In this document: one piece after another, positions 34,703-63,337 of the stretch
Layout: every line of letters starts with the position of its first letter
Numbering within the stretch: the stretch's first letter is position 1
From: Echinarachnius parma
Taxonomy: Eukaryota > Echinodermata > Echinoidea > Clypeasteroida > Echinarachniidae
DNA: 64,000 nucleotides
Reading direction: 5' to 3'
Assembly: GCA_037951105.1 (NCBI GenBank)
Contig: JBAMJV010003128.1
Location: 27,331-91,330 of the forward strand
Program-made: the position numbers and the translations under genes
Notes under the pieces: generated by a model
What the model saw: only the letters and a program-made list of their open reading frames with translations
Told to the model about the DNA's origin: nothing
The model's database searches: none

Positions 34703-35288
34703 CTGGAAGGCACACGCTCTACCAATCTTGCCACACCGTCTTGCTCTGTCATCCTTCTCCAGCTTGGGCGGATCCCGTCTGTCGTGGTCTTCTATCTCCT
34801 AGCTAGCTCTGCAAACCAGGCGTCTACTGCATACATGAGAGGCTGCTTGATGAGCTGAAATATAATATATAACATGAAAATAAAAATATAGTATACTAAG
34901 TCTTGTAACCTAAACTATATTCAATGACACAGTTTCATCATTCAGATTTATAATTTTGTTCCCACAGTCAATGTCTTGGACATACATATCACCTTGAAAT
35001 GTCACGGTACAAGCTGTCACAGCTCTAGATAAAATACTAATTAAAACCATTTGTTTTCGTCACATCATATCCAATCCATGCTCACCTGCAAACTGGAATG
35101 TTCAAGGGATAAGTAATCAATTACATTTTATAAACCAGCATTCTATTTTAAAACGAGCCCAAAGAGACGAATTAAGTCAAGTACATGTTACCCCGTCGAC
35201 TTTGTAAAGAATGCCATAATAATAAAACATTTTAATTTTGAGCAACAAAATCATTTTTTAATTATCTTTTAGCAAGTGACCTACTTAA

Positions 35289-35877: not shown

Positions 35878-36364
35878 TACTGTATACTCATGTCCATTAT
35901 TATAGCCATAAAACAAATAATAATTATTTCATGCTTACTGAACTACAAACTAACGTCGTGACTATCAAAGAAAAATATAAGCCCAAAAAGAGTACACAAC
36001 ACATGACTTTCGATTCATTCCATCAAATAGAATGTTATTATTTTGTAGTGAAATGAATACATTCTCTAGTGACTATGCAAGTCCTTTTTCTCCTTTTCCC
36101 CAATTAATAATAATTGTGGCTACTTAAATGTAGCGCACGCATAGGCATACCCGGGGGGGGGGGGGGGGGGGGTTTAGGGGGTTTAACCCCCCCCCTCCCA
36201 TTTGACCGAAAATAACCGTGTTTTTTTTCTTCAAATTTTAAATGGTCTCGAGACCAAATTTAAGCGGTCGAGTGGTCTTGGACTCGAAAACTGCAAAAAA
36301 GCGTGTTCTCGGCTTCAAAAATGGTTGGTCTCCGCTTTGAAAAGTTTCCACGACTTCCCGACGA

Positions 36365-36397
<33 letters not shown>

Positions 36398-36613
36398 CAG
36401 ACATAAATTTGTTTGGAAGCAAAAACCTGTTCCGTCTTTCGGCGCCCCCGTTGCATCACTTTACCCCAGTCAGCACAAAAAGTGCACATTGTCCACTCCC
36501 TGGGGAGGATTCCAGCTAGGCAACCTCCAAGGAGCAGACATTGCTACGTAACTCCTTTCCATCCTTCCGGGTGGCATACCTTGGGCTCGAATTTGGGACC
36601 TCACATTGGAAGG

Positions 36614-38837: not shown

Positions 38838-39310
38838 CTGGAAGGCACACGCTCTACCAATCTTGCCACACCGTCTTGCTCTGTCATCCTTCTCCAGCTT
38901 GGGCGGATCCCGTCTGTCGTGGTCTTCTATCTCCTAGCTAGCTCTGCAAACCAGGCGTCTACTGCATACACGAGAGGCTGCTTGATGAACTGAAATATAA
39001 TATATAACATGAAAATAAAAATATAGTATACTAAGTCTTGTAACCTAAACTATATTCAATGACACAGTTTCATCATTCAGATTTATAATTTTGTTCCCAC
39101 AGTCAATGTCTTGGACATACCTATCACCTTGAAAAGTCACGGTACAAGCTGTTACAGCTCTAGATAAAACACTAATTAAAACCATTTGTTTTCGTCACAT
39201 CATATCCAATCCATGCTCACCTGCAAACTGGAATGTTCAAGGGATAAGTAATCAATTACATTTTATAAACCAGCATTATATTTTAAAACGAGCCCAAAGA
39301 GACGAATTAA

Positions 39311-42611: not shown

Positions 42612-43266
42612 GAACAGTAAAGGAGAGCGCATTCACATCTAGGTTCTTTGATGTAACTTCTCTGCCATCATGCCTGTCTCTCTGTGTGAGTGGCGGATCA
42701 GGATTGGGAGGTTCTTTCCGCGAACTCAGAGCGATGACGATAAAGGATGTACACGCACTCATCAGTCAAGGACAAAGGGGAAGAGACATCAGCAATCCAG
42801 CTCCAATGTTTCTCAGGAGAATGACCAGAAAAATGAAAGCCATGAACCAAGGAGCCTAGGCTATGTGGTTGTACTTATTCTGGTAACATTGCTGACATCG
42901 GTTTGTTTGCTAAGAATGAGTGAGGGGCTGGTGCCTAACCTAAATGACCCTGGAGATTCATTCGATACACGTTCAGTCAGAACATCAATGCTGAACTCTC
43001 CTGTCTGGTCAATCCAGTCAATATCTGCATCATACGACAACTCATCACTCGAGCATTCTGAAGTTGAAAATTCTTCAAGACTGAACTCTTGCTGCTTCAT
43101 AATCCAGTCAGTACCCCCATGTTACGACACCTCTCCAATGACACCACCTTCCAACCAAACCAGCTCTGACGTGTCTTCAAGACTGAACTCTCACGGAGCC
43201 GCATCTTGTAGCAACTCGTCGGGGTTTGGAGTCAACGAACCATCGACATTTGGACTTGCCATGCAG
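42612..43266 (+). CDS. NLR gene exon 1: 5' UTR and transmembrane N-terminus
   Basis: The acceptor TTCTGCATACAG precedes 58 nt of 5' UTR with an in-frame stop (TAG at 42640). The ATG at 42670 has A at -3. The exon ends at ATGCAG|GTGAAT in phase 0. It codes 199 residues: a basic, hydrophilic head, one hydrophobic segment at ~63-81 (LGYVVVLILVTLLTSVCLL), then a Ser/Asn-rich tail with two and a half imperfect repeats of an SSRLNS...IQS...CYDTS type and four N-x-S/T sequons. Positive charges before the hydrophobic segment suggest a type II signal anchor. Assignment to this gene rests on phase, order and distance, so it is less certain than the later exons. A minus-strand 79-codon frame here is a shadow. 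Confidence 0.65.
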
Positions 43267-46200
43267 GTGAATATTCATGTTTTCCACATTTTGTTTAACT
43301 ACTTTCGAATAGTTTAGCGTATAATGTTTGTTTTATTGCCATAAATACATCCCATATAGCCATTTTGTATTGTTTCTACAACTGTAGTAAATTCATATAA
43401 TTATGGTCAGATGCCTTGTGTTTTTAATAATGTCTACAAAAAGCTGCATCACTTCAGTGATGGCTCGCCCATATCTCTAAGTTAATTTGTACCCTTTTGT
43501 GAAAATATCTTATAACCATCGCGGACAAATTTGGTAATAACTTTCAGTTATTCCAATCTAAAGGGAATTCAGACAGGTATATTAGATGCGTGGATCCATA
43601 TTTCGCACTTGTACGCACGGTACCGAACCCGAATACCCGAGTCAAAAATGCATCAAAAATAGTCGCGTTTGGAATATTTGTACTAGTCGAATGGAGATCC
43701 ATCAGAGATGTTTACGAGCGAAAATATTACGTTACACGTTTAACCGCACCGAATTCAAAGTGCCACTGTTTGTTGCCTTAGGTGATAGCTCGAAAAACTC
43801 GCTCGGTATAGAGATACCAGCTTTGCTGCATGCAATATTATAAGAAGGCCAGTGTTCAGATATTTCGAAGCACCGCTCTTCGATCGATCCAACACATATC
43901 GTGAGTTTACTTCAGGAGATTACGGTGGAGTGCGAGTTGGAATTTGCTAACTACCCATTATATCCCACGCATATATGCCTTTACGTGATTATTCAATCGA
44001 TGTACTGTGTCAAATACAACTTTCACAAGAGTCATATGTTTATGTTATACTTACTGTAATACTTAAAGCAGAAACCCAACAAACTATGTATAATATACAT
44101 AGCTTGTTGTGTTCTTGCTTATTACATAATTTAGTATAACATGCGACTATAAATCGTGTGAGAGTTGTAAAAAGACATAATATTAAGTCTACGCGCAATA
44201 TTTTTAAATGATGTTTTGAAGTATAATCAATTAAACTCATTTACTATAGTTTAAAGTTTAACCAAACTCTATTAGCTGTCGCAAATGTATGACTATATCA
44301 TTCTTGCTTAACCGACACACTTTTGTTTTGATATTTTTACTTCAACCAGAAAACATACCATCCAGTTTACTAAAGGTTGTGAATGTAGTGATAGATATTT
44401 ATAATTTGAGGAGATTAATTTAATGAAATTAATTGCAAACCTGTTTCACGAATCGTGTGAGGTGTCTTAAGGTATAGTGTATTATTCATTAACCTGCATC
44501 TCTGATGTATGTTTCCTCTCTATCTGCAGCAGGAAGCCTTCTCTCAGAACTCATCCTTGTCACCCTGTGTGAGCCTGATGAATTGCCAAGGACAATGCCT
44601 GTGGAATCTGTTCGTCTCTAAACTACACCTCGCGAGGGCAGGAGACATAGAAACCAACCCTGGTCCTCAGACCAATCCTCAGACAGGTCCTCGGTCCCAA
44701 GGAGCAAGGAGCAAGGATGTCGATAACAGGTAGATGAACATCTCCTATACATTAGTTTGACTCGTATGGTTACGGAGAAGGGACCGCCGAGGTTCAATGT
44801 CTTATTTCGATCTAGATTTCGTCTCTCTCCTGCTTAACTAATGCTCACGAGCCTTCTACAACCTCACATTGTAAATTATTCCAATAGTCTTCATCAACTG
44901 CATGCATAATCCCGCATCTGAAGCAAAGTTAACACATTTTCTATGTGATCCTGTATAATATTGGTCCTGAGCTAACTCTACACACTATGGGAACACACAA
45001 TTTATTAAGGAACAGGCTTATCAACACAACATTTTCTGCATGCTTTAGGTAGAGGACGATTGGTTTGATAGTCACATTAATTTATGGACAGTGGGAGGAG
45101 AACACGAGACCTCCGGGTTGCTGGACCGCTGCTTCATTAGCTGTATTAGTCCCTGCATGTTTTGAACCAAATTTGCAATGTTTTTCAAAGTGAGTGTGAA
45201 TAATTAATCATCAACACACCTATTTAAAATCAACACCCTTATAATCCTTGCCAAAAGTGCAGCCAATTATATTCAGCAACCAGTACATCCCCATATTTGA
45301 TATTCTGCAGCATTTCAATATTTGTCTCTTTCTTCCCTGATTTTGCATATATTCTATCATCACAGACCCACTACACCTACAGACATCCTATCCGATGAGT
45401 CCATCATGGACCTAGCCAGACAAGTCCTTCCTGATCAGCTTCATAGACTAGGCGTCGGACTTGGGATATCCTGGAACGAGGTCCAAAGCATATGGGTGAA
45501 GCACCTGAAGGACACAGCAATGGCCGCGACGGAGATTATCATGGCGTGGAATACGAAGCATGGCGCTGGACCTGAGCAGGCGGAGAAACTCAAGGTCATC
45601 TTGGACTCGGTTGGACTGTGTACACCAACAGCAGCTGCTGCTACATCGACGCCGTTGCTACGAGGTACGTTGAATAAGGTTATTGAATTTCACTTTGAAG
45701 GAAAACAAAAATCTGCCTACAGCAGAGATTGTTAAATCGGGAGTGGAAGGCGAGTCAGTTGGTCGGCCCGTGGCTCAAGAAATAGTCCCTGCACTAACAA
45801 CATCGACGAATAAAAACAACATTATGTTTGTATTAGTGTCTGTATAAACTTCTCTAATTAAACATGACTGTAATATAATAATCTAGTAACCGCTATGTTT
45901 AGCTTAGTAAACTTAGTATAATCCTGTGTTTCATTCAAATGGCACAGTTTTCATGAAAAAAACAAAACATATTCATTGTTTCCCTAGTTACGGCGTCGAT
46001 GTAGCAGCAGCTGTTGTTGGTGCAAGCTCTATTTCTTGAGCCACGGACCGAACAAAACCTCCACCATCGCATTACAAACTAACAGTTATTATTCCACGTA
46101 CTCGAAAGGAATACAACATTACAAATACCCAAGTGAAAAGCCTGTTAGAAATGTATTATTAACAAAAGAACACTTAACACTCATAAGGGCGCTTTCTACA

Positions 46201-49200: not shown

Positions 49201-52200
49201 GATGTTTTGTTGAAATAATTATTAAATAGTGAGATCATTAACAACTAATTAAAAACCGCGAACATTAATTTTGGTCGTGTAGTTTTTGTTTTAGAGCGCT
49301 GTGAGTGACACCATGTCAGGGTTCATTTTTCTTCAATTTTGACTGACCTATTGGCTAAAGAATGACCCGAACGGCTCGTCATAGAATTACGATGCACAAT
49401 GATGCGGACGCCTTTGTTAGTGTGCATTCGACTGAATAGCCACAGCGCCGTAATTCTATGCCGAGCCGTTCGGGTCATTATTTAGCCAATAGGTCAGTCA
49501 AAATTGAAGAAAAATGAACCCTGACATAGTGTCACTCACAGCGCTCTAAAACAAAAACTACACGACCAAAATCAATGTTATTGGTATCAATTTTCATTTT
49601 AAAAGACACACTATCCGATGGACCCAGTCATTTCGTTGCTTTATTTTGGGAAGTGCCCCGTTCCGTTATTTCTGGGCCACCCTGTATAGCGAACACCGCG
49701 TGTACATGCACAGTCCTCGCGGTCGTTATACACGTAGCGTATGGGCGATTCCGCTTTGGCGATATCTATGCCGACGGCATAAATATATAATTTCAAAAAT
49801 ATACAAATTAGTAGGCGGTTTCTTGGCCAAATTTGGATAATCCTATTTTAGTACAATTATATTGTTTCACATTATTGGTAATAAGAGCTTCCATTTCATT
49901 TTTTTAAAGAGGGGGGCGTTTCTCAAACTGGTCTTTACCTTCAATAGCATCAGTCATGGGATACCTACATTGGGAAGCTTATTGGGGGTCCAGGGGGTGG
50001 AGCCCCCGGAAGCTTTGGGATTTGCAATATCTAGATATAAATATGTTGTCTATATGTATATATAGAGTTAATTGGCTTCCGTATTAGCTGTTGAGAGATT
50101 GGAAGATTATTAAGTGCACATTACAAGCATTTTGTTATGATGAGGGCACTATCCAAGTATTTTAGCCTGATAGATAAATACTATCGATTGCAATCATCCT
50201 GATGGAACCCTGAATAGAATAAGTCAAAGGGATACCAACATTGGAAAGCTTATTGGGGGTCCAGGGGGCGAAGCCCCCGGAAGCTTTGGGATTTTTAATA
50301 TCTAGGAATACAATTAACTATTGAATAGTTAGCTCAATTTAGTGAGCGAAGCGCAAACGCACAGTGGGCCAGGATCGCCTGAAAGTTTGCCAAGAGAGAA
50401 GTCCTGAATAAAACTATTTAATGAGTACAGGGCTGGTACTGGGTCAAATAACCTTAATGGGGGTTCCAGGGGCGCAGCCCCGGAAGATTTTGGATTTGCG
50501 CAGTTTACCATTATCAAAAAGTGGTTTAAAGAAGACTATAGTAACAACTTCCATTCATGAGAGGGGGCAATGCTCCTTAATTTTAATGTTATATATTTTT
50601 GAAACCCAAATATTGGGGGGGGGGGGGGGGGATGATAATACAGGCCATCCCCCCACCTGAAATATTGGGGGGGGGGGGGGTTTTCCCCACCCCCCCCCCC
50701 CCCCCCCCCGTGATCGACGCCCCTGCGTGTGCTCCATAAACGGGGGGTCTATGAGTGAACGTGCGGAGTTACCAATTTTATCGTAATTTGCTAAAGATTG
50801 TATCAAAGTATACCACCACATTTTGGGTGATTTTAATGTTGGTATTGCGGAAATTATTTATAACGTTCTTGCCTATTTGTGTAGCTAATAATTAGGAAGA
50901 AAATAATAAATGACTATGTTTATTTTTCATGTATGGTTTACTTAGAAGATTGGCCTACGGTGATTTTTACGGGAAACTAGTGCATCCGTGACATAATGGA
51001 TTTTGAGGATCGTTACATTGCTCTTTGATTATGTATGTTATTTTTCTTAACTCCTTCATCAATTGGGACAAGTGAACGGTTTGAAATTTCTTAATAGTAT
51101 GAAATTGTTATCTATAATCATTATTTTAGTTATCAAAGTAATGAATTTCGCAAATACGCCCTTCTTTTAAAGCAACACGAGTCCGTAGAAAAACAAATGG
51201 CGATGACGTTCAGATACCAAAAGTAGTGATTTACAAAACAAAAAAAAAGAAGCCTGTAATTGCTCATCGGGAAAAAAATGGTTTCAGCAAAAACAAAAAC
51301 AAATTCGTACGCGGGTTATATTCATGTGAGTAGTGGGTACTGGCGATGAAATTAATGTATTATTATTATATATCACGCATTGTATTTGAAGACAAATTAA
51401 TATTCAAATCAGGCAGTGGCGATTGTACATTCCCCTTCCACAAATAACTCTATCAGTATTACACTATATTAAAACAAATACAAATAACCCTAACAATATA
51501 TTTACAACTATAAGGCGCACGTTTGACAGTTGGAATATGAAGTGAAACTGAGTAACCCATATTCAAGAACCCGTGGCATATTGCATGTATGCATTGATAT
51601 GCATGGCCACATGAGCAGGTTGAGGGGCGGGGAGGGGGGGGGGGGGGGGGGGGAGATTTTGGCATACCATGGGCCTTAGGTTACATGGTGACATATTAAG
51701 CGTTAACATTATTATCATTGCTACATAAACATATGGTACACTGAACAATGGGATCTTACAGCGGAGATGACTATAATGTATGAATGTGGTAGCTGATGAG
51801 GGGTGGTACACATGCAGTTGGTTGGAGGACACTGAGGGGAAGGACACAGTGGTGACACAGTGGTTTATAGACATTTAAAGGATTATTTTCTACATCACAC
51901 TCACATGTTGGTTGACACTTGATGTCTGGAGGGTGCCCTTTTGTGTTATTGGCTCTTTACATGAAAACAGCCCTCTTACTTAATGTGATCCATTAACGTT
52001 ATATTTTCCAAAAAGTGACGTTAACAATTTACCAAATATAACTACATACTATTCGAAAGAACACGAGATTCTTAAAATAAACATTGTTTGATCCAAATCG
52101 GTTCATAAACAGCTTAAATATCAATAAATAAATGCGGTTGGAATAACTGTTGATCCCCAACATTTATTTTACAATTATGAAAATAGCTAAAGTGATCGTT

Positions 52201-55200
52201 CAGTTTTGGTTTAGAGGACGCTTTGCAAAATGTCTTTTACGAGATAATGAAAGACTTATTGAAGTAAGACTTGGAATACAGAATCTGTCGTTTTGTTCGG
52301 TCAAATCGGCTCAGAAAATGCTGAAATATATTCAAGTTTATCCCGATTGCAATATATGATGGGGACCAACTTCTATGGAATAATTTTAGATTTTTTTTTT
52401 TAATTCCTACATGACAACAAAACCGTATATATTTCCTTTTGCAGTATTCAATTCAATTCAATTCAACATTTATTTCAGATAAAAATCAGATACAAATTTG
52501 TACAGTTACAATGTAACAGGTAGCACCTATAAGAAGCACGAAGCTTGTCGAGTAAGGGCACCCAGCATGTTATAGTAATTAAGAGATACACTATCACAAT
52601 TAAACACAATATAATATTCACATACGTATAATATAATATGAATATAAAGAAAATAAAAATGGCAAGGAATAGAAATAATTTAATACAGAATAAAATGCAT
52701 ACAAAATGCAGAACGTTAATTTACAACAAAAAAATAAAAAGAATTAAAACATTACAAAAAAAATAATAATTCGCAAAGGAAACAATATAAATATAACAAA
52801 GAGCAATACTAATCTAACAGATTAAAGCAACAACTAAAACAACACGATGTTTACATATTTACCAAACAACACGAAACATGACAAACGGGTATACGTGATT
52901 TCAATAAAATAATAATAATGTGATTAAAATGTAATCAAAAGAAAGATTGGCAAGTAATAACAAATGGAATCATATTGAAAGAGTAATGATAGACAAGATG
53001 GGTACATATAAATAAGATGCAACACGCACAATACAACATTTTCAAAGCAAGTTATTTGGGGTTGTTCAAATTTGCCTTTAATATTTTCCTAAAGTTGTTA
53101 TAACTGAAGTGTTTAATTCCTTCTTCTATGTTATTCCAAATATTAAAGGGATAGTTGAGTTCTGGTAAGGAGAGTACAGTTTTAGTGAAACTGAATTTTA
53201 ATAATAATAATAATAATAATAAATTAGACTTTTAGAGCGCCAAATCCACTCTGAAGAGTGCTCAAGGCGCTTTTTAAAGAAAATTAAGAATCAAACAGAA
53301 AGGTTTTAAGGTGAGACTTAAAAGATTCAGAAGTGAGGCATAACTTTATATGTTCAGGAAGCCTGTTCCATAAATTCGGAGATGAATAAACAAACGATCT
53401 TTCCCCCCAGGTTTTTGAGACTTTGAGAGGAACTAGAGAACTGGAGGTGGATGAACGTAATGATCTTGCAGGGGTGTACCTCTGAATTAATGAAATTAAA
53501 TATTGGGGAGAGGAGCCATGGACACAATGAAAAGTCAATAATAAGATCTTAAAAATAATACGTTGCTTTACAGGTAACCAGTGTAATGATCTCAAAATGG
53601 GAGTAATGTGAGTGCGCTTGGGGGATAAAGAAACTATGCGAGCTGCAGCATTTTGAAGCTTTTGAAGTTTGAGCAGCTGGTTCTGTGGAAGGTTGAATAA
53701 TAAAGCGTTACCAAAGTCGAGACGGGAAGAAATTAAAGCGTGAACTAATTTTTCTGTAGCATTAGTAACCAAAACCTGCATCATTACATTACAAACTAAT
53801 AGTTATAACTAGAAAGGAACACAAAATTACAAATGACGTAGTAAAGATCATGTTATCATTCAAAAAGAGCCGTTAAAACGTAAGAGGGCGCTCTCTAAAC
53901 ACTCATCGGTTTCAACAATTTTGAATAAAATATTGTGCATGTGATGCTTTGTTGAAATAGTGATTAGACAGAGAAATAACCAACAACTATTTAAATACCT
54001 ATTTTGTAACTTTTTGAAAAGAGGAAGCATTTTTTTGAATTTTTAACGGCTGGTTCAAAATTCTCTAATAAACCCGGGGCCCCGGGTTTATTACAAATTG
54101 TTATATTTATGGATATTTCAGCCGTTTCTGAACCGATTTTGATCAAACAAAGATGATTTTATTGTTTAAATATTATGCTCTTTCAAATTTTACACTCAGT
54201 TTTTCATTACCTCACAAACCAATTAAGTAGTCTAGCGCCCTCTCTACCAAAGCTCAACTTTCCCTTTAACACCATGATACCTTATAGACTGTTTCTGTGA
54301 AAAAGCTGTTCTAAATAAATGGGGCCGATAATTTTCCCTTTTTCTAGTATTGATCGTATGTACATTAAACAGTTTAACAAAGAGATCTAAAAATATGCTA
54401 GGAATCAAATCATGATTCATTTTAAACATAAAAATTGCTGTTTTAAAGAATATCAATTTTTCTAATGACAATGTTTTTAATTCAATAAATAATGGGTCAC
54501 AGTGAGCTAGATAATGGGCACCAGAACAAATTCTAATGACTCTTTTCTGCAATATTTGTATTTTATTTAAACGAAATTTGCTTGCTCTTCCCCAAATAAG
54601 CGTGCAATAGTTGAGGTGAGGCAAAACCAAGGTATTATAAAGTAAAAACAAAATATGAGAAGGTAAAAGGGACTTTAATTTATTTAGTACGCCAATATTC
54701 CTGCTCATTTTTGATGAGGTGCATACAATGTGTCTATCCCAATTAAGTTTATTATCAATTATTAATCCAAGGAAGTTAGTGTAATCCACTTGTGGTATTT
54801 GTTCATTATCAATTTTCAAAATAACATTATCAATGCTTCTTGTTTTATTAAAAATTAAATATCATACATTTTGTTTTTGAGGTGTTAACCCTATTAAGGC
54901 CGGGGGGGGGCCATAATGGCCCCCCCCCTCCGGAATTTTTTTTATTGCTCCAAAACGCTGCAAGATGACGCGCCGCTGCTTGGTGACTTTTTTCTTTCGG
55001 GTCTTGCGCACGTTTTAAAACAAAAATTTCGAAAATCGGACCCTCCGTTACAAAGTCACGTGACCTTTTGTCTATGCATGTCAGCCCGAAAATCGCTAAA
55101 TTTCGTGATTTGTGTACAAAACATATGGAAATATCAATTTTCATAAAATGAGGTGTATTATTAGATATTTGGTGTTGTTTACATTTTATATGTTGGTTTT

Positions 55201-58200
55201 GGGGTTCAAAACAGTTAAATTATAGTTAGAAATAAAATAACAACAAAAACAATAAAATACATAAGTTAAAAAAACAAAGAAATACATAAGAAATTAATAA
55301 AACAATAGAAAACAAAAGGAAGAACCGGGCTCTTCCAATTTTTTTTGTTGTAGTATCATTCCAAATGCTCTAAAGAATATATGTAGTGAAAACCAGAGTT
55401 TAATTATGAAGAATATATGATTTATGGGTAAAAATATGAATTTCATGACTTATTTGCATAAATTACCATAAATATGCAAATTAATGAATTTTTCAAAATT
55501 TTTAAAAATTACCATTGTATTCTATACACTTCACTTATCACGCGTGCAAATTTTTACGGCGATCGGCCGCTCCGCGGCCGAGATCTTAGGGGGGGGGCCA
55601 TAATGGCCCCCCCCCCGGCCTGCTGAAGACCTCAAATAGCCCGGCCTTAATAGGGTTAATCAATAATTTATTCGCTTTAAACCAATTCGATATATTTACA
55701 AATTCATTATTTGTTTTAATTATCAAAGAATTTACGTCATCATCCGAAAGAAAGAGTGTTGTATCATCAGCATATAGAACGTACTTAAAAAGACTAGACG
55801 ATTGAACAAGATCATTTAAGTACAAAAGAAAAAGTAGTGGTCCTAGTATGCTCCCTTGTGGTATACCTGTTGTAATATTAGTGATAGTGGAGTTTGATCC
55901 CCTAAAATGAACATATTGTCTACGATCTTGTAAGTAAGATGCAAACCATTGGTAAGCAACGCCCCTAATATCAAATGCTGATAACTTTTGTAATAAAATG
56001 GCGTGATTCAGAGAATCAAAAGCTTTGCTTAAGTCAATATAAGCTACCTCACCACGATCAATGAATGATGAGATTAATTCAGTGGCATACAATAAAGCTA
56101 ATTCAGTTGAGTGATTCGGGCGAAAACCAAACTGTTGGGGTGTGAGTAGATTATGGGATACAAGATACTTATAAAGTCTGTTATATACAATGCGTTCCAG
56201 GACCTTTGAGAGAGTAGGGAGGAGTGAGATTGGGCAATAATTATTTAAAGTATTCACGTCACCAGATTTATAAACAGGAATTACTTTACTAAATTTCATT
56301 GCTTCTGGAAATTGGCCACTTACTAAAGATAAATTACAAATGTGCGTAAATGCTGCGCATATATATTGAGTAATATCTTTTATAAAACACGAATTCATAC
56401 CATCTGCACCAGTAGCATAACTTCGTTTTAAGTTCCCAATTATCTTGGAAACCTCATTTTCATTTGTTGGAAACATATACAACGAATCCATAGGATGATC
56501 TTGTGATAAAAAGTCTCTAAAATTACATTGAGTTGGTTGCATTTTAGCAGCAATACTTTTACCAATATTACCGAAGAAATTTTTAAATACATTTGCAATT
56601 GACTCATTATCCACTATTTTCCGTTCATTAATCATAATAAAAGATGGTAAAGTATGGCTTTTTTTTAGTACCAAGTAGTTCTTTGATTATTGACCAGGTT
56701 CGCTTTAAGTCTGATGCGCTATCTTGTATTTTCTTTGCAATGTATAATTTCTTCGATAATTGTATGATAGCATTCAATTTATTTCTATATTTAGTATATT
56801 TTAATCGATCAGTTACTGACTTCGAGGACATATATTTCTTATATAAACGTTGCTTTCGATTGATCGAATGAATGATCCCTTTTGTTATCCAGGGTTTTTT
56901 AGGACAATATTTCCTTTTTTTCACAGACTCTATGATCGTATGTTTTTCACACACATTATGTAGTACTTCAACAAGCTGTTCATATGCTACATTAACATCA
57001 CTACTGTTCAAAATCAAGCTAAAATCTAAATTACTTAATTCCTCTTTCATAGAATTCATATCAATTCGTTGTCTATTACTATAATCAAATAATTTGCTCG
57101 GGAGTGGATCAGTGACCTGTGTAATTTGAAATACCGGAAAATGGTCCGACACATCTGTATACAATAAACCAGCATTAATGGGATTTTCATATACATTTGT
57201 AAACACATTATCAATACAAGTTGATAAGTGGGTAGTAACACGGGTCGGCTTCGTAATCAAAGGTCTGAGGCTGCATGATAATAATGTATTGAGAAATCGT
57301 TCAGTATCTTCATGAGAGGAGTGTTTAAGCAAGTCAAAATTGAAGTCTCCGGTCAAGTAGCACTGTTTATTTTCATTAGATATCTTTTCAACACAAATTG
57401 ATAGTGAATCAATAAATTCATCTGAGTTTGAGTTTGGAGCTTTGTATATAACCCCTACAATAATATTCTTTTTTGTTTCTCGCTCAAGTTCAATAAAAAG
57501 AGTATCGACTGTGTCGGTAGAAAATTGAAGATCAGGCCGTTCTTTTACCTTAAACTTGGGATTTATATACAAGCATGCACCTCCACCCTTTCTGTTTACA
57601 CTGTGTTTATGAAAAAAATTATAATCAAAGAGTTTATACATCGAGGGTACGTTTTTCTCAAACCACGTTTCCGTGAAAGCATACACATCAAACTTATGCT
57701 CAAGCGATGCAAGCAAACTTTGAATGTGAAAATATTTTTGAAGGAAAACTCTGTGCGTTTAAGTGAAATAAGGATATATTTTCCTTTGTATTATTCACAG
57801 TAAAAGCTTCATTAAATTCATCACTAAAATAATATTGACATTGGGTATCATAATGTTCTAAATCAATCCCACCATCCTCTGAGTTCAATGAGAAAATATC
57901 AAATGCTAGGTCATTCAATCGTAACAAATCAATATTTTCATTGCATCGAAAGAAAACGCGCAGAGTGTCTTTGTATTCTTTATCATCTATAACATAATTG
58001 AATGGAAATTCATTTGCAAAACAATATGGACACACCCAATCGTTATCAATTGAAATTTGTTCGTTAGCACAATTTGTATGTGCTTGTCTAGAGCATTTAC
58101 ATTGACATCGTAACTGATTCCTTTTCATAGTTTTATCACAAACAAAACACTTCATGTTAACTCAACACAAAGTGACAACACGACATGAACGATATACAAA

Positions 58201-61200
58201 AACAATAACAATGAAAGTAGGTGAATGTAAACACACCAAAACTGATAATACAGAAATGAAAATTGGTGAATAAGCGTCTGAACTGAAAAAACACCACTGA
58301 TTACGTTTATGCATTCACATTATATAATTTGTCAAACGGGCAAATAGAATTGGTCATACCTGTAAAGTCCATGTTCATGTTTTATCGGCTATGTCTTTAT
58401 CAGAGGAGAGAGTCATGATTTTGTTGTCTCTTGTCCGCACTTTGACTCTCCCATCTTGAGTCCAGACTTTGTTGTGCGGGGCTGGGTATTTTTGCCGTGC
58501 TTTGCGTAGCCATGATTGACGTTTTGGTGTCAGGTTCTCGTGGATAAAGGTGTTTGTTCCTTTGAGGTTCTTTCTTGCATCGTAGATGCGAGCTCGAGGT
58601 CCGTACCTCGAGAATTTGACGATGACAGGACGCGTCAAAGGGCGGCCATGTTGATTCTTCCTTCCCGGTCTGCCGATGCGATGACTCCTGTCGATGTCGA
58701 AAGCTTCGATGTCGAGCTTGAGCTTCTCCTTTGCCAAATCACGGATGAGGGCATCTGTATCTTCACCTTGCTGCTCTGGAATTCCATGCAGGATTATACA
58801 ATATCGGCGTGAATATTGCTCAAGCTCTTCTATGCGGCTTTCGTAGTTGTTTGCCTCGGTTTTCAATTTTTGGATTTCACCATCTCGCTTTTCGATCTCC
58901 AACATGAGCCCTTTGTAGACAGCTTGACTAATGGCCGGTATAAGCTTGTCTAAAAGCTTTTGATCACTGAAAGCTTCGATGATTTGGTCCACAATGTTGG
59001 CGTTCAATAGCGATTGAACGTTACCCCCATTTTGCTGGGACTCCGTCGGCTCGCTCAGTTGACCCCCGTTACCATGGTTACCGCTTGGCTGTGCATTGTC
59101 ACCCGGCGGATTCGGCGGGAGATTTGACGAGGTTCCGTGCGTTGATCTTGTCTCCATAGGCATAGTGTTATAGCATTTGGTCCAAATTTGTTGCTCTTAA
59201 AATGCCAATTTGTCTGGAAATCTCACAAAAAATATACAATCGAGATAGTATACTTGTGATAGAAATGTCTTTTGCCCAAGTTGTGACCGTAATCAGGGTG
59301 CAGAAAAGCGATTTTTTAGGTTAAAACATATATAGTCACGGAGCGCATAAAATGTACGTCAGAACGCCGTCACGCAATAGCCTCTTGAAATGTCTCTTGA
59401 AAAGCCTCTTGAAATGTCCCCAGCTAAATTTTGCAGAACCCATACAGGTTCTACCAGGTTACGCAGTCAATTGAGTTGAAACTTGTTTTTTACGCGGAAA
59501 TCTAATTTCAGTTGCACAGTGGAGCTAGGATTTCTTTTGAATTGAATAAAGGCAATATATAATACAATGGGTGATTTCAAGTATGGTGTTGGGGTTAGTG
59601 TTAGTGTTGAGGGTGAAAAACTGCCTCTAATCTGAGCTAAACACCAGCTTCCAGATTAAGCATCTAAGGTCACGAACTTTTTAATCGTGATGACCTTGAG
59701 TAGTAATCGATCAGTATCGCTAGTGTTTGTCAACACCAGAGACAAAATCACGCGAACACCCTTAAAATGGTAACGAAAACGCTTACATGGTTACGAATTA
59801 GAGAGCAAGCCGTAATGAAGATTTACCACATACATGTATTGAATACTATAATTAAAAAAAAACATTCAAACCATTCACTTGGTCGATACGATTTTAGTGA
59901 ATATTCCCTATTTTTAGTGAAATTTGTAACTAAACTCGCAAGAAATGTGCGTGACTCTCTTCTAAAAATTGAATGCCCGTCGCGCGCTGAGACATATGGC
60001 TAGCGTTAACGGTTTGCATAGCCGAAGATGTAGGCATAAATCCCGGTGACAGCACGGTAGCAAGTTCCGAGTTAATACCAATAGTATGTAACATGATATA
60101 CTTTATTAAAATCGGTCACGTGATCACTAGGTGCTTGGTGGCCGAGTGGGTTAAGACCTGTCGCACGTGTATCACTTAACCAGATAAATCATAGAAGTGG
60201 GTTCGAGTCCCCGGTGTGGTTATTTTTTTTATTATTATTTTTTTTTTAGCCATTATTCACAACAAATTTACTACAGTTTTTAACTCAATTATAAGTTCAC
60301 TGTAATAAAATGTCAAAGATGTACAGACAATTCCCAGTGCTTAGTGACTTTTTTCGGGGGAGGGGGGGGGGGGTGGCGGGTGTATAATTAGACAAGAAAT
60401 ACATAAAATAATTAATGTTAACAACAATATAAACATAAGGAAGAACCTGGCTATTCAAATTTTGCTTTGTTGTATTATTATTCCAAATGGTCTAAAGAAT
60501 TTATGTAGTGAAAACTAATGTTTGATTATAAAATAATGAAAATATGAATTGTATGACCTTATTTCTTTAAATTACTATAGATATTCAAATCAATACATTA
60601 TTAAAAAAATAAGATTTGCATTGCGTTTCATAATCTTCACTTAAGTAAAACTTCAAAAATTATCTAGGTTGACACCCTTTTTACATGCTCAGACAAACAA
60701 AAACACCACCATTTCAGTTCAGAATTGTGATTTTAATGCCCACCTAGCAACAGTAACACTAACACCAGCTCGATCTGTACTTGAAATGACTTTCATTTCG
60801 ATCCCTATGGAAGTTGTTATCTCTATGGAGTTTTGCGTATACATGCTCAACACTAACACTATCGGGCAGATTAGCAGACGACGCTAAACACCAGCAACCA
60901 CGTGCCACTGCCGGAAATACGAGGTCAAACCTCTAACACCAACTCATTTCAAGTACGGTGTTAAGGCTGCAGTTAGTGTTTAATAAACACTAACACTAGC
61001 TCAACACCATCTCTGATAGTATATTGCCATATCAATAAACACCGCCAGTCGGAAACGAAAGTTTGTACAACGGTGAAATCAGAGGTCATCACGTTAACAC
61101 CATCCTAACACTAAGTCATTTCAAGTATGGTGTTTAAGCCCGATTTAGTGTTTAATAAACACTAACACCAGATTTAAACACCATACTTGAAATCACCCAT

Positions 61201-63337
61201 TGAAAATTGTTGTTGGTATCAGTGATGTCAATTACATGTTATGTTTAGCTGGAGAATAACAACATAACTTAACGTGACAGAGAAGATGATGCTATGATAG
61301 CTCGTTGTCATGTGTGAAAACAGTAGATTTAATGAGGCCTGGTCTATGCATGACATATGAATAAGATTTAGCTAATTTAGGAGAAAAATGTATGAAGAAC
61401 AAGTCTTTTTTGGAATAGCAATACTTGAACGGTTTATAAAATAGTTTGCATACATTTTTTAACAAAATGCAATTATATATATACCTTTATACACGTATGA
61501 ATACTTACATGTTCAATTTAGACATTATCAGTTTTTGTATTGTGCTCTCCCGTAATAGTGTTCCCATGTACAGTCATAAAATGCCTACGCATACTTATAT
61601 AACATAGACCGAGGAACTCTTCCGATATCAACACATTTCACCGTCGCCGATTGTCGCCGTAGAGTCATGTAATGCCTGTGCAGTCTTATATTACAACATG
61701 CATTATTTCTCTGTTCTTTCTATCTTTTCATTTTAGACCGCGGAGCTCTTCTGATATCCCCAGATTTCACCGTCGTCGACTGTCGCCGTCTTCTAGCAGA
61801 TCGCTACAGAGATGGAATTTGCCTGGTGAACAGAATGCCAGGGTTCAATAACCGTTTAGTTAACGTAAAAGATGTGTACACTGTAGTCACTATGTACAAG
61901 CAAGATGCCTGCGGTAATACTCGTGGAGAACAGGAGAGGGTGGTTCTTGAAGGGTCAGTTAACGGCATTTTAACAACCGAAATAAACGGGAGGCTACCAA
62001 ATCGTATAGTGATTTATGCTGCAGCGGGAAAGGGCAAAACCACAGCCGTTGGTAAAATAGCTATTGATTGGGCCGATCGGGTTCAGGAATCCCCGTTGAA
62101 TGATCTGCCCATTCTGTTCATACTCAGACTTCGATACATTACACGTGATCAATCCTTAGGAGAGGCAATAGTAAAAGAACTTCTTAGAGGTGTTGAAGAT
62201 CTTACTCCTGAATCACTGGAAAAGTTCATTCGGAGAAACCCGGGCTTATGCTACATCATCTTTGATGGACTTGATGAGTACAGTGGCAGCATTTTAGTCA
62301 AAGAAAATGAGAGTCAAAGTAATATCATAGATATTTTGCAGAACAACGACATGATACAATCAAGAGTTCTTGTCACGACTCGCCCTCATCTTGAGAAGGA
62401 TTTCAACCAGGGGAAACTCGCAAACGTCTTTGCTAAATTTGAGATCGAAGGGTTTTCTTCTGAAAATGTACAACACTTTCTGGGTGACTTCTTTGCCGAC
62501 AAACCATCCTCCGGATGTAAATTGAAAGCGTACTTGGACAATAACGACCTACTGAACGAGCTGGTAACAACACCCCTTTTTTGTCTGATGGCCTGTACTC
62601 TGTGGGATCACCCCGACAACCTATTATTGGGCATACAGACGCAATCCGAGCTCTTCGATGCAATCCTCACCTACCTTTGGTATCAGATAAGAGAAAAGGA
62701 CGAAAGCAAATATACCCAAGCATGGCTGACAAAGACGAAAAATCAACTAGGGGAGATAGCTCTACGAGGACTTCTTGATGACAGTAACAAGCTCCTGTTT
62801 ACAGATGAGGATTTCAAACTCCACCCTGAAACCTTAGATAATGGACTCGCATTAGGAATCATCTCGGAATCTAGCACCGATGCAAAGCAAAATCCCTTAA
62901 AACCAAATCAAACAGTCGCAAGGAAAATTGAGTATTTCCACAAGGCTGCTCAAGAGTGTATGGCGGGCAAATACCTCTCACGATGCTACACGAAAACAAA
63001 TATGTTGTCCAAGAAATTGGCGATCTCTAAATTTGATAAAATAATAGAGCAAAAGGCACAATGTATCGGAGACTATGAAAACCTTCTCCGATTTGCAGCG
63101 GGGTCAGATCAAGTGACCTGCCTCAAGGCCATAAGTGCAATCCTATCATCTCGGTATCTGGAAGAGAGCGAACAATTACGTATTATTATGGACTTGTCCA
63201 CAGAAGCACAGGATTTTGGAAGCAACGTGTCTGGCATCCTAAATCGTTTCATCCAAGCAGAGTCTGTGATATTGACCTCGCCAACCATCTACACTGCCGT
63301 GGGAATGAAAGCTCTGCCAGACGTGCTCAAGAAAAAG
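42612..63337 (+). CDS. NLR-type immune receptor with 2A, Death and NACHT (3'-partial)
   Basis: Four exons (42612-43266, 44530-44729, 45366-45664, 61737-63337) join through GT-AG introns in matching phases 0, 2 and 1. From the ATG at 42670 the total is exactly 899 codons, still open at the last donor. Order: transmembrane Ser/Asn-rich region (residues 1-199), 2A-like motif ending at Gly244/Pro245, Death domain (~270-350), NACHT NTPase (~400-900). NLRs sense pathogen or danger cues and oligomerise through NACHT; Death domains recruit adaptors. The 2A element predicts two separate proteins from one mRNA. Leucine-rich repeats, expected next, lie outside the window. The 16-kb third intron is filled with transposons. 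It could be a pseudogene only if later exons are broken; nothing seen here is disrupted. Confidence 0.85.
43267..44529 (+). other. NLR intron 1
   Basis: Donor GTGAAT at 43267; acceptor TCTCTATCTGCAG at 44517-44529 after a pyrimidine-rich tract. The acceptor is followed directly by another CAG, so a NAGNAG choice could add or drop one Gln. No other feature is recognised. Confidence 0.6.
44530..44729 (+). CDS. NLR gene exon 2: 2A-like recoding exon
   Basis: The exon opens QEAFSQNSSLSP and carries FVSKLHLARAGDIETNPGP, then a Pro/Gln/Thr linker. It ends AACAG|GTAGAT, leaving two bases of a codon. The D-[IV]-E-x-N-P-G-P signature is complete and the upstream residues (L-x-x-A-G) match known 2A sequences. 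The exon is short and seems dedicated to the recoding motif, so a splice variant that skipped it (200 nt) would shift the frame. Confidence 0.85.
44614..44667 (+). promoter_or_regulatory. 2A-like ribosome-skipping motif
   Basis: GDIETNPG|P at 44641-44667, with the final Pro codon CCT at 44665. In 2A sequences the ribosome releases the nascent chain at Gly and resumes at Pro without forming the Gly-Pro bond. All residues of the core are present. Such motifs occur in RNA viruses, in some non-LTR retrotransposons and, in sea urchins, near the N-termini of NLR proteins (established knowledge). Predicted products are a 244-residue membrane protein and a receptor that begins with Pro. Confidence 0.85.
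44730..45365 (+). other. NLR intron 2
   Basis: Donor GTAGAT, acceptor TCTATCATCACAG. Nothing else is recognised in its 636 bp. Confidence 0.7.
45366..45664 (+). CDS. NLR gene exon 3: Death domain
   Basis: The exon starts PTTPTDILSDESIMDLARQV, continues with LGVGLGISWNEVQSIWV and AATEIIMAWNTKHG, and ends with an Ala/Thr-rich linker. The pattern (hydrophobic helix 1, LG-x-x-LGIS, MAW-x-xK-x-G, terminal L..L..VGL) is that of a Death domain of ~80 residues. The donor is a strong CGAG|GTACGT, phase 1. Reading on past the donor gives only a short tail and a stop at 45733, so intron retention would yield a Death-only protein. Confidence 0.85.
45740..46050. repeat. Inverted copies of an exon-3-tail-like sequence
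   Basis: CCGTGGCTCAAGAAATAG at ~45765 and its inverse at ~46026 bound a small inverted repeat. The right arm also contains the inverse of GCAGCTGCTGCTACATCGAC, which is the 3' end of exon 3 (about 45630-45655). The same ~45-bp Ala-codon-rich text therefore occurs in the exon and, inverted, in the intron. Confidence 0.65.
46053..46549. mobile_element. TTAA family-1 MITE, left-truncated
   Basis: From AACCTCCACCATCGCATTAC to ACCAAAACTGAACTATCGC, followed by TTAA (46550-46553). Aligns along its length with 12953-13494. About 30 bp of the left end are missing. Confidence 0.75.
47165..47460. repeat. TTAA family-1 fragment, inverted
   Basis: The interior of family 1 in reverse orientation (CAAATCAAGT, GGGCCCCAAATAAATAC, AGAGAGCGCCCCTTG). 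Ends not preserved. Confidence 0.55.
47918..48111. mobile_element. ~194-bp CAGTGGCGTAGC element
   Basis: Starts CAGTGGCGTAGCGTGG and ends GTAGCTACGCCACTG, its inverse. In between lie poly-G stretches, a T-rich core and poly-C. No clear target duplication. A very widespread type of short element in marine invertebrates. Confidence 0.7.
48627..49258. mobile_element. TTAA family-1 MITE carrying a nested TTAA MITE
   Basis: TTAA (48623-48626) then AGGAAAGACCGACAGTTTTG; the body matches family 1. It is interrupted at an internal TTAA by the element at 48771-49129 and resumes with AAAGCAATAGGGCGCTC exactly as family 1 would. The right end is lost at the palindrome starting near 49262. Confidence 0.75.
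48771..49129. mobile_element. Complete TTAA family-2 MITE (359 bp), nested
   Basis: TTAA (48767-48770), AGGGATCTAGTAACTTTGTT ... CAATGTTACTAAGTCCCT, TTAA (49130-49133). Imperfect inverted ends. This is the best copy of the family that is split at 20836/23128. Confidence 0.85.
49262..49580. mobile_element. ~318-bp palindromic element
   Basis: Two arms of ~130 bp (ACATTAATTTTGGTCGTGTA on the left, its inverse on the right) pair almost perfectly, around a ~50-bp loop with CGATGCACAATGATGCGG. The stem includes GAGCGCTGTGAGTGACACCA. No target duplication determined. It truncates the family-1 MITE to its left. Confidence 0.85.
49957..50515. repeat. Three GGGGGTCCAGGGGGCG hairpin repeats
   Basis: Copies near 49957-50050, 50229-50320 and 50440-50515 share ATACCAACATTGGAAAGCTT, TTGGGGGTCCAGGGGGCGAA and CCCCCGGAAGCTTTGGGATT. 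Each contains a GGGGGC/GCCCCC hairpin. Spacing is ~270 and ~210 bp. Confidence 0.75.
50600..50730. repeat. Poly-G/poly-C dispersed repeat
   Basis: AATATTGGGGGGG blocks, a long poly-C tract and GATCGACGCCCCTGCG, like the piece at 29130-29320. Confidence 0.65.
50731..52184. other. No recognisable feature in intron 3
   Basis: A/T-rich sequence with one poly-G tract near 51636-51654. A 70-bp reverse fragment of TTAA family 1 may lie at 52060-52140. No exon is supported. Confidence 0.45.
52185..52370. repeat. TTAA family-1 end fragment, inverted
   Basis: GTTCAGTTTTGGTTTAGAGG is the inverse of the family-1 right terminus. It is followed by ATCGGCTCAGAAAATGCTGA, the inverse of the tail. Confidence 0.6.
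52446..53069 (-). other. LINE 3' UTR and tail
   Basis: A-rich non-coding 3' region with AATAAA near the end and a tail of TTGAA repeats (seen as CAATTCAATTCAATTC on +). Confidence 0.75.
53147..54263. mobile_element. TTAA family-1 element in LINE ORF2, carrying a LINE fragment
   Basis: TTAA (53143-53146), AGGGATAGTTGAGTTCTGGT ... ACCAAAGCTCAACTTTCCCT, TTAA (54264-54267). The interior matches family 1 on both sides of an L2-like fragment (53198-53766). Removing the element and one TTAA leaves LINE ORF2 in frame, so both edges are well defined. Confidence 0.9.
53198..53766 (-). pseudogene. 5'-truncated L2-like LINE, RT C-terminus
   Basis: The minus frame reads LVHALISSRLDFGNALLFNL, LQNAAARIVSLSPKRTHITP, LHWLPVKQRI and WNRLPEHIKL..FKSHLKTFLF, the conserved tail of CR1/L2 polymerase ORFs. 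It is followed by an AAAGCGCCTTGAGCA 3' module and a (TTA)n tail. It lies inside the family-1 element. It is a different LINE family from its outer host. Confidence 0.85.
54889..55655. mobile_element. 767-bp TTAA family-6 element in LINE ORF2
   Basis: TTAA (54885-54888), CCCTATTAAGGCCGGG ... CCCGGCCTTAATAGGG, TTAA (55656-55659): perfect 16-bp inverted ends that begin CCCT, as in piggyBac elements. Each end continues into GGGGGGCCATAATGGCCCCC. The interior is A/T-rich and non-coding. A diverged copy of its interior lies at ~60390-60660. Confidence 0.9.
55660..56668 (-). pseudogene. LINE ORF2: reverse transcriptase core
   Basis: Contains YCPISLLPTLSKVLE, FGFRPNHSTELAL, motif A AYIDLSKAFDSLNHAIL, TTGIPQGSILGPLLFLLYLN and the catalytic YADD box (KYVLYADDTTLF), then SNWFKANKLLIN. 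All RT catalytic Asp residues are present. The frame is cut at a TTAA by the element at 54889-55655; downstream of that element the frame resumes at TSKTKCMIFNF without a lost or gained base once one TTAA is counted. Confidence 0.9.
56670..57716 (-). pseudogene. LINE ORF2: APE-type endonuclease
   Basis: Motifs in order: FDVYAFTETWF (catalytic Glu), GGGACLYINPKF, VGVIYKAPN, YLTGDFNFDLL (Asp and Asn), THLSTCIDNVFTN and SDHFPVFQI (Asp-His). The layout matches the apurinic-type endonuclease that nicks target DNA in CR1/L2/jockey LINEs. It is followed by the linker YCPKKPWITKGI, typical of the region before the RT. At 56661-56669 a run of eight A residues (minus strand) shifts the frame by one relative to the RT. 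Confidence 0.85.
57700..58155 (-). pseudogene. LINE ORF2 N-terminus: PHD-like zinc finger
   Basis: The ATG at 58155 opens a Cys-rich head: CFVCDKTMKR, CQCKCSRQAHTNC, then WVCPYC. The spacing C-x2-C...C-x-C...H-x2-C...C-x2-C resembles a PHD finger in about 45 residues. An acidic linker follows, and then the first endonuclease motif (LFHLNAQS). The frame breaks near 57735 by one base; the continuation is in the next frame. A PHD finger at the front of the endonuclease/RT protein, rather than in ORF1, is noteworthy. Confidence 0.7.
58375..59163 (-). CDS. LINE ORF1, RNA-binding protein
   Basis: 262 codons, intact. Residues ~1-60 are a low-complexity Pro/Asn/Gly/Gln head. A coiled coil follows (~85-115, EIEKRDGEIQKLKTEANNYE), then an RRM-like region with IILHGIPEQQGEDTDALIRD, DRSHRIGRPG, RPVIVKFSRYGPRARIYDAR and TFIHENLTPKR. 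This is the coiled-coil plus RRM plus C-terminal-domain layout of L1-type (transposase_22) ORF1 proteins, also found in CR1/L2 elements. It should coat LINE RNA and act as a nucleic-acid chaperone. It lies antisense to the host gene. Confidence 0.85.
   Translation of the reverse strand: MPMETRSTHGTSSNLPPNPPGDNAQPSGNHGNGGQLSEPTESQQNGGNVQSLLNANIVDQIIEAFSDQKLLDKLIPAISQAVYKGLMLEIEKRDGEIQKLKTEANNYESRIEELEQYSRRYCIILHGIPEQQGEDTDALIRDLAKEKLKLDIEAFDIDRSHRIGRPGRKNQHGRPLTRPVIVKFSRYGPRARIYDARKNLKGTNTFIHENLTPKRQSWLRKARQKYPAPHNKVWTQDGRVKVRTRDNKIMTLSSDKDIADKT
59164..59564. other. Probable LINE 5' UTR and junction
   Basis: Sequence upstream of LINE ORF1. The start of the LINE and a target duplication could not be fixed. 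Confidence 0.4.
59565..61202. mobile_element. 1.64-kb TIR element
   Basis: The left end CAATGGGTGATTTCAAGTAT, continuing GGTGTT, is mirrored at the right end. Subterminal regions contain many AACACTAACACCA-type motifs in both orientations. Inside are a tRNA-like segment (60130-60222), a poly-G tract and a fragment related to the family-6 element. No matching target duplication was found. Confidence 0.65.
60130..60222 (+). ncRNA. tRNA-like (Leu/Ser-type) sequence with Pol III boxes
   Basis: TGGCCGAGTGG is a textbook A box of class II tRNAs and GGTTCGAGTCC a perfect B box, ~62 nt apart. An oligo-T run at 60223 could terminate Pol III. The acceptor stem (5' GGTGCTT against 3' GTGTGGT) and the T-stem pair poorly, so it is more likely a tRNA-derived SINE head or tRNA pseudogene than a working tRNA. 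Confidence 0.5.
61563..61736 (+). repeat. Tandem duplication of the exon 4 boundary
   Basis: 61608-61662 (ACCGAGGAACTCTTCCGATA ... GATTGTCGCCGTAG) is a diverged copy of the first ~55 bp of exon 4, including a preceding AG. It ends in an in-frame TAG. The ~100-bp segment around the acceptor is thus present twice; only the downstream copy leads into NACHT. Confidence 0.75.
61737..63337 (+). CDS. NLR gene exon 4: NACHT NTPase
   Basis: Starts in phase 1 after a strong acceptor, reading RGALLISPDFTVVDCRRLLA and then DGICLVNRMPGFNNRLVNV. Walker A is YAAAGKGKTTA (62027-62058 region), with Ala in place of the usual first Gly. Walker B is CYIIFDGLDEYSG, the DGLDE form typical of NACHT. SRVLVTTRP is the sensor-like strand. 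FEIEGFSSENVQHFL and LNELVTTPLFCLMACTLW belong to the helical region after the NTPase fold, and EYFHKAAQECMAGKYLS is a winged-helix-type motif. It ends KKK|GTATTG in phase 0, so coding continues beyond. NACHT drives nucleotide-dependent oligomerisation in the cytosol. Confidence 0.93.

What the first reader, a model, noticed from the sequence alone, without database searches (positions are those of the whole stretch)
42612..63337. NLR gene predicted to make two proteins through a 2A-like motif: a membrane protein plus a Death-NACHT receptor
Exons 1-4 join in phase and total 899 codons. The 2A core GDIETNPGP separates a 244-residue N-terminal product with a type II-like signal anchor from a receptor starting at Pro245. 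2A-like sequences near NLR N-termini are known in sea urchins, where they can act as switchable targeting devices. What looks unusual here is that the upstream product is a substantial membrane protein with Ser/Asn-rich repeats and N-glycosylation sequons, not just a short signal peptide. One locus would always express a membrane partner together with a cytosolic receptor.
Basis: partly seen in the sequence, partly recalled or inferred. Interest (0 to 1): 0.9.

Follow-up and report, generated by a model that had tools for sequence, protein, structure and literature searches.

The report
2A-split membrane protein plus NLR receptor
An echinoderm immune-receptor gene appears to make two proteins from one reading frame, a fast-changing membrane protein and a Death-NACHT receptor, separated by a virus-like 2A 'skip' signal, and it belongs to a large family of similarly built genes in the same genome.

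Summary
Four exons (42670-43266, 44530-44729, 45366-45664, 61737-63337) join in phase into 899 open codons, with GDIETNPGP at 44641-44667. Exons 3 and 4 are a Death-like and a NACHT exon of the S. purpuratus/Lytechinus type. Exon 1 gives 157 matches in the 1.2-Gb host genome. All 25 exon-1 copies that could be checked have a 2A motif within 15 kb downstream on the same strand, none upstream or opposite. Five of five fetched chains run exon 1, 2A, Death-like, NACHT. In 14 of 14 exon-2 copies found without using the core, the core is intact (omega 0.17), while the exon-1 ectodomain evolves at omega 1.0. So 2A here separates a membrane-anchored, fast-evolving N-terminal product from an NLR, across a gene family. 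2A-bearing NLRs are known from sea urchin (PMC4981915); my paper searches showed no report of this long membrane partner. 'Always' a cytosolic receptor is not supported: some translocated upstream proteins block 2A in cells (PMC2978324). No RNA or protein evidence. New variant of a known kind.

The parts
42612..42669 (+). non-coding start of exon 1 after an AG acceptor; in-frame stop at 42649
   Evidence: acceptor pyrimidine fraction 0.76; stop before ATG
42670..43266 (+). exon 1: 199 codons, N-terminal product (tail, membrane helix, Ser/Asn-rich ectodomain)
   Evidence: donor GT at the same place in 29 of 30 exon-1 loci
42670..42714 (+). conserved first 15 residues, family signature
   Evidence: omega 0.13 over 17 copies
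42856..42912 (+). membrane helix, residues 63-81
   Evidence: hydropathy; helix 63-85; hydrophobic in 30 of 37 signature ORFs
42982..43220 (+). degenerate in-frame repeats of the ectodomain
44530..44729 (+). exon 2 carrying the 2A element (alternative acceptor 44533)
44641..44667 (+). 2A core GDIETNPGP; predicted break between Gly244 and Pro245
45366..45664 (+). exon 3: Death-like domain
   Evidence: Pfam Death E 0.0025, 18.4 bits, below cut-off 22.6; matches S. purpuratus Death-like N-termini
61737..63337 (+). exon 4: NACHT exon
   Evidence: Pfam NACHT 8.6e-18; 115 of 120 relatives align to its last three residues
62006..62500 (+). NACHT domain proper
   Evidence: converted to window coordinates
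53284..59196 (-). non-LTR retroelement remnants inside intron 3 (no part of the gene product), no 2A core
   Evidence: RVT_1 and endonuclease; motif scan

Best explanation
This is one member of a large echinoderm NLR gene family whose mRNA encodes, in one frame, an N-terminal membrane-anchored protein, a 2A/StopGo element and a Death-NACHT receptor. Shown: the open chain, the same gene order in paralogs, and selection keeping the 2A core. Inferred: ribosomes release the 244-residue product at Gly244 and resume at Pro245. The first product inserts by its signal anchor, most likely tail in the cytosol and fast-evolving Ser/Asn-rich part outside or in the ER lumen. The second product is a cytosolic Death-NACHT receptor. 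A fraction, set by 2A efficiency and by contact with the translocon, stays fused. Proposed role, speculative: the two are made in fixed ratio as a bait (variable ectodomain) and a guard (NLR), with the conserved N-terminal 15 residues as the cytosolic contact.
For: Chain and motif; coding exon 1; 157 exon-1 matches genome-wide; 438 2A motifs, retroelements included, against 0 for the reversed pattern; 25 of 25 checked exon-1 copies with 2A downstream on the same strand, 0 upstream, 0 opposite; 5 of 5 fetched chains exon 1-2A-Death-like-NACHT (chosen as contigs holding both an exon-1 and a NACHT match, 5 of 10 such contigs noted); 14 of 32 exon-2-type 2A exons (12 of 30 without the doubtful L057 and L059) have no Met 15 or more residues upstream in the open frame, so they need an upstream coding exon; GT directly after exon 1 in 29 of 30 exon-1 loci, tested without asking for it (the exception is the broken copy L038); 14 of 14 exon-2 copies (10 distinct) with intact core, core omega 0.17 against 0.80-0.85 just upstream; membrane helix in 30 of 37 signature ORFs; Leu at p7, Gly at p11 and Asp at p12 as in active 2As (sequence; PMC12846837 sections 6 and 10).
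Against: No transcript, no translation assay. The window's own exon 2 has a Met 22 residues before the core, so a short-leader start is possible for this copy. The context upstream of the core varies between copies (p7 is Leu, Gln, Asp or Val), so efficiency may vary. Ectodomain omega near 1 also fits relaxed constraint. Three of 37 signature ORFs are broken (L038, L039, L073), and four rows (three contigs) carry internal stops. Flank charges do not fix topology in the window. The only database match to exon 1, P0121, is 96% identical to paralog L018 of this genome, so conservation beyond this species or a near relative is not shown (that search needs shared 5-residue words). The five chains fall into two groups of close paralogs (L070-L072, L073-L074).
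Confidence: 0.7

Rival explanations
1. Dual targeting: 2A is deliberately leaky, and the working form is the fusion, an NLR anchored to the membrane through exon 1. The split form is the alternative state.
For: Known logic for short S. purpuratus NLR 2A leaders (PMC4981915); 2A inhibited in cells behind some translocated proteins, including type II signals (PMC2978324, passages); variable context upstream of the core.
Against: Type II orientation would put the receptor in the ER lumen; a core under purifying selection points to kept cleavage, though it does not give its efficiency.
Confidence: 0.15
2. The receptor is translated from its own start in exon 2 (or exon 3); exon 1 is an alternative or separate transcript.
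For: Window exon 2 has an in-frame Met 22 residues before the core; a short-leader class with its own Met exists in the genome (L040, L045, L061, L062).
Against: 14 of 32 exon-2-type exons have no such Met; 25 of 25 colinearity with exon 1; open phase-0 donor at the same place in 29 of 30 exon-1 loci. The window Met context (CTG before ATG, read by eye) is weak.
Confidence: 0.1
3. Exon 1 or the 2A is a mobile-element fragment that landed beside an NLR.
For: Retroelement-like frames with 2A exist in this genome (9 of the first 30 motif loci, two of them one place, classed by eye) and retroelement remnants lie in intron 3.
Against: Ordered, strand-specific chains in paralogs; the 2A exon is flanked by splice sites; no RT or endonuclease domain in the 899-codon chain (Pfam).
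Confidence: 0.03
4. The locus is a decayed copy, the frame being open by recent duplication only.
For: Three of 37 signature ORFs are broken; ectodomain omega about 1.
Against: All four exons open; N-terminus and 2A core under purifying selection in the family; Walker A and B segments present in exon 4 (read by eye).
Confidence: 0.05

Closest known systems
S. purpuratus NLR 2A signal sequences (SpNLR2A; Roulston et al. 2016, PMC4981915)
   Same: Echinoderm Death-NACHT NLRs with a 2A-like core in the N-terminal region; 85 of 241 NLRs reported there
   Different: The ones characterised there are 26-residue N-terminal leaders (14 listed, one tested in depth) whose 2A is itself the signal sequence; here 237 residues with their own membrane helix precede the core and the 2A stretch is weakly hydrophobic (KD max 0.71). 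The paper also mentions 2As 'within the N-terminal region' without detail in the parts I read, so longer upstream parts may exist there
[quoted passage not shown]
   Same: Core DIETNPGP, Gly at p11, Leu at p7
   Different: Cellular immune gene, spliced exon, no viral or RT domains in the chain
S. purpuratus and Lytechinus NLRs such as P0024, P0033, P0043
   Same: Exon 4 and, in P0024/P0033, exon 3 are homologous; 38-47% identity; same end of the NACHT exon
   Different: 0 of 120 fetched relatives carry NPGP; only 50 of the 120 have 80 or more residues before the NACHT exon, so absence is tested in those 50 gene models only
Paired or bait-guard NLRs (recalled: plant NLR pairs with integrated decoys)
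   Same: Idea of a fixed sensor-receptor pair
   Different: Pairing here would be by one ORF and ribosome skipping; functional analogy only, untested

Membership tests
2A/StopGo element | core (D/G/C/N)(V/I)ExNPGP | tested here: met
   DIETNPGP
2A/StopGo element | suitable upstream context in the exit tunnel | tested here: inconclusive
   p7 Leu, p11 Gly match PMC12846837; p6 His and p9 Arg differ from F2A; varies in paralogs
2A/StopGo element | skipping activity in translation | not testable with these tools
   no assay; indirect: core omega 0.17
NLR | NACHT domain | tested here: met
   PF05729 8.6e-18
NLR | N-terminal Death-fold effector domain | tested here: inconclusive
   Pfam Death E 0.0025 but 18.4 bits under the 22.6 cut-off, no Death hit in the 655-residue scan; profile with seven relatives hits Fas and PIDD death domains, its first row being another protein; single-sequence fold uninformative
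NLR | C-terminal LRR | not testable with these tools
   contig ends at the window end
SpNLR2A dual-targeting leader | 2A at the very N-terminus, about 26 residues | tested here: not met
   237 residues precede the core
SpNLR2A dual-targeting leader | 2A stretch is itself a signal sequence | tested here: inconclusive
   hydropathy only, max 0.71 over 19 residues, which speaks against it; SignalP not available
Non-LTR retrotransposon with 2A | RT or endonuclease in the same ORF | tested here: not met
   no such domain in the 899-codon chain
Type II membrane protein | single hydrophobic signal anchor | tested here: met
Type II membrane protein | N-terminus in the cytosol | tested here: inconclusive
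   tail net positive in 30 of 30 copies; near flanks 19 for, 3 against, 8 ties, window a tie

The most novel reading that the evidence does not exclude
A genome-wide multigene immune system built of natural two-protein cassettes: 2A hard-wires a 1:1 pair of a hypervariable membrane bait (conserved cytosolic N-terminus, diversifying ectodomain) and a Death-NACHT guard, so diversity of recognition lies in the 2A-released partner rather than in the receptor alone.
Probability: 0.25. Interest if true: 0.93.

Novelty: new variant of a known kind. Interest (0 to 1): 0.78.

Why it matters
Cellular use of 2A is rare and known mainly from viruses and retroelements (PMC12846837). A family that keeps a 2A core under selection between a membrane protein and an NLR would show that animals use ribosome skipping for fixed-ratio co-expression of immune partners, and gives a concrete set of genes in which 2A function, dual targeting and bait-guard pairing can be tested.

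Tried and rejected
Protein search with residues 1-380 against long proteins: none of 5438 candidates. Repeating with the 266-residue N-terminal part gave one hit among 281 candidates, P0121, which turned out to be 96% identical to paralog L018, so it shows no wide conservation. Neutral-simulation test on P0121 was weak: zero stops in 6-11% of runs, substitution scores not different from neutral. Fold of exon 3 alone: pLDDT 62, no meaningful structural match. Viral-contig scan with P0121: nothing. tRNA and Rfam scans of the window: nothing. Sequon enrichment: rejected. Pfam on the Death-like exons of L073 and L074 gave no Death hit; they are called Death-like by tblastn similarity to exon 3 (54 and 62%) only. 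The C31 pair (2A 19.6 kb upstream of NACHT) is probably a retroelement motif (L041), so 9 rather than 10 of 29 NACHT places may be true. Two second-piece rows (C1321:44010, C1980:14790) were merged with their first pieces before the count of 25. One search lists 100 of 438 motif places (to contig C2882), so only exon-1 copies on those contigs could be checked, and one search does not list its weakest matches. The 17 copies used for omega were picked by a pattern that needs a GT codon after exon 1, so they cannot test the donor; one search tests it without that. The donor weights are a recalled consensus. A genome-wide search with exon 2 and a count of the N-terminal signature did not complete. 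An earlier count gave 15 exon-2 and 4 exon-3 loci of 30; the correct count is 14 and 3.

Full report
What is there. All borders are GT/AG. By a recalled consensus, donor scores of exons 1-3 lie in the best 2% of all GTs of the region and the exon 4 donor in the best 8.2%; the exon 2 and 4 acceptors are strong, the exon 3 acceptor ordinary. A tandem CAGCAG acceptor makes 899 or 898 codons. The 2A core DIETNPGP starts at 44644; it is the only D[VI]ExNPGP in the window and did not occur in 60 shuffles. Upstream of the ATG at 42670 there is an in-frame stop at 42649.

Exon 1 is coding. In its frame the codon score (trained on exon 4) is 0.085 per codon, the best of six frames, while 210 overlapping intron windows reach at most -0.098; 0 of 2000 shuffles of the exon stay open. 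It has one strong hydrophobic segment, residues 63-81 (KD 2.67; 0 of 5000 shuffles), a helix at 63-85 in a model that is otherwise disordered (single sequence). The part after it is Ser/Asn-rich with degenerate repeats spaced 90 and 102 bases. Sequons are not more frequent than chance (5 against 3.2, P 0.20).

The receptor. Exon 4 holds a NACHT domain (E 8.6e-18) with PDB relatives NAIP and NLRP3. The 655-residue product had 127 relatives among the 7993 scored candidates, including S. purpuratus and Lytechinus NLRs at 38-47% identity. 115 of 120 align to the last three residues of exon 4, which supports the 63337 donor. Exon 3 matches the N-termini of S. purpuratus P0024 and P0033 (E about 9e-6 among 121 proteins) and Pfam Death at 18.4 bits (cut-off 22.6; 6 of 8 rows of the alignment match Death); a profile with seven relatives finds Fas and PIDD death domains, after a first row of another kind. 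In a midpoint-rooted FastTree of 118 NACHT sequences the window falls in a clade with 31 of 42 unnamed proteins (support 1.0), apart from 33 S. purpuratus and 42 Lytechinus sequences. The host is therefore most likely an echinoderm, probably not of those genera; its name is not known. None of the 120 fetched relatives has NPGP (the one NPG found is internal), but only 50 have 80 or more residues before the NACHT exon.

The family. The genome is held: 1.2 Gb, 14,790 contigs, window at the end of contig C3127. Exon 1 gives 157 matches there; some copies give two or three rows, and the tool calls its counts lower bounds. 34 rows, the window included, span residues 1-199 at 66-100% identity; many others match only in part, down to the first 40-85 residues, in open frames of up to 899 residues. 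The degenerate 2A pattern occurs 438 times, its reversed control 0 times. For the 25 listed exon-1 copies on contigs covered by the motif listing, 25 have a motif 0.55-12.6 kb downstream on the same strand, and within 15 kb 0 have one upstream and 0 on the other strand. Of 29 top NACHT places on those contigs, 10 have a motif within 20 kb upstream, 0 downstream, 0 opposite (one of the ten is probably a retroelement). I noted ten contigs holding both an exon-1 and a NACHT match; the five that I could fetch (L070-L074) all show exon 1, 2A exon, Death-like exon, NACHT in order, with the exon-1 frame of L073 broken. They form two groups of close paralogs. The Death-like exons of L070-L072 reach Pfam Death at E 0.005-0.012, below cut-off; those of L073 and L074 are recognised by similarity to exon 3 only. 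Of the first 30 motif loci in contig order (L040-L069), classed by eye: 17 are small spliced-exon type, most with the exon-2 context (L057 and L059 not); 4 are short leaders of 33 residues with their own Met; 9 are retroelement-like frames, two of them one place.

Selection. Over 17 full-length exon-1 copies omega is 0.13 for residues 1-15 (bootstrap 0.03-0.37), 0.59 for 16-60, 0.54 for the helix region, and 1.00 for 91-199 (0.68-1.44); 91-199 exceeds 1-90 in 99% of resamplings. Copies are related, so these are descriptive. Of 30 exon-1 loci, 14 have exon 2 within the 1.5-kb flank and 3 also part of exon 3. Found without using the core, 14 of 14 (10 distinct) keep it intact, with omega 0.17 for the core and 0.80-0.85 just upstream. 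The core therefore looks kept for what it does. GT follows exon 1 at the same place in 29 of 30 loci. 14 of 32 distinct exon-2-type exons have no Met at least 15 residues before the core in their open frame, so these 2As can only be reached from an upstream coding exon if translation starts at AUG.

How it most likely works. Known from others: 2A stalls the ribosome and skips the Gly-Pro bond; D12, N16 and the residue at p7 matter (PMC12846837, sections 6 and 10 and passages). The window has Leu at p7, Gly at p11 and Asp at p12. S. purpuratus NLRs carry 2As, 85 of 241, at the N-terminus or in the N-terminal region; the tested 26-residue leader also works as a signal sequence, so that uncleaved product enters the exocytic pathway and cleaved product is cytosolic (PMC4981915, section 2, first part of section 3, section 9; its Table 1 was not shown). 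Here the membrane signal lies far upstream of 2A and the 2A stretch itself is only weakly hydrophobic (max KD 0.71), so the design differs: the first product is a real protein. When the first protein is being translocated, some sequences just upstream of 2A block skipping in cells but not in lysate, and the downstream protein is then carried into the ER as a fusion (PMC2978324, abstract and passages). Skipping here may therefore be partial and controlled. Topology: the N-terminal tail is positive in 30 of 30 helix-bearing copies (mean +5.4), favouring tail-in; the near flanks agree in 19, oppose in 3 and tie in 8, the window among the ties.

Novelty. 2A-bearing NLRs are known; the 2A is not new. 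A long, membrane-anchored, fast-evolving product upstream of it, in a family of this size, did not appear in the paper searches (listings and abstract starts; four papers were opened, in parts: PMC4981915, PMC12846837, PMC2978324 and passages of PMC11512398). The 2013 paper on 2A in retroelements is not held. The bait-guard role is my inference from the evolutionary pattern and has no direct test.

Noticed in passing
window 8850-12051 and 12390-12656: About 400 and 33 copies of an 8-base repeat (ATAGGAGG) that give long false open frames.
   Followed up: no
window about 32150-34860 and 36190-38940: What looks like a direct duplication about 4.1 kb apart, with the same 15/30-base tandem arrays and near-identical open frames.
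   Followed up: no
window 25102-26890: Reverse transcriptase of a non-LTR element in two overlapping frames.
   Followed up: no
window 49280-49570: Long inverted repeat with arms of roughly 130 bases, MITE-like, seen by eye.
   Followed up: no
window about 60130-60222: tRNA-like or SINE-like stretch with a B-box-like sequence, seen by eye; not called by ARAGORN.
   Followed up: no
L046, L047: One retroelement-like open frame with two 2A cores 95 codons apart.
   Followed up: no
L040, L045, L061, L062: A second NLR-type 2A class: 33-residue leaders MAAA[KR]SPCSS... with their own Met, resembling exon 2 near the core.
   Followed up: partly
L065, L070, L071, L072: Exon-1 subclass with nearly the same first 15 residues but a Lys/Arg-rich tail and no membrane helix.
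   Followed up: partly
G000:C9645:64156-64716: NACHT match inside a reported open frame of 21,670 codons, perhaps a run of N read as open.
   Followed up: no
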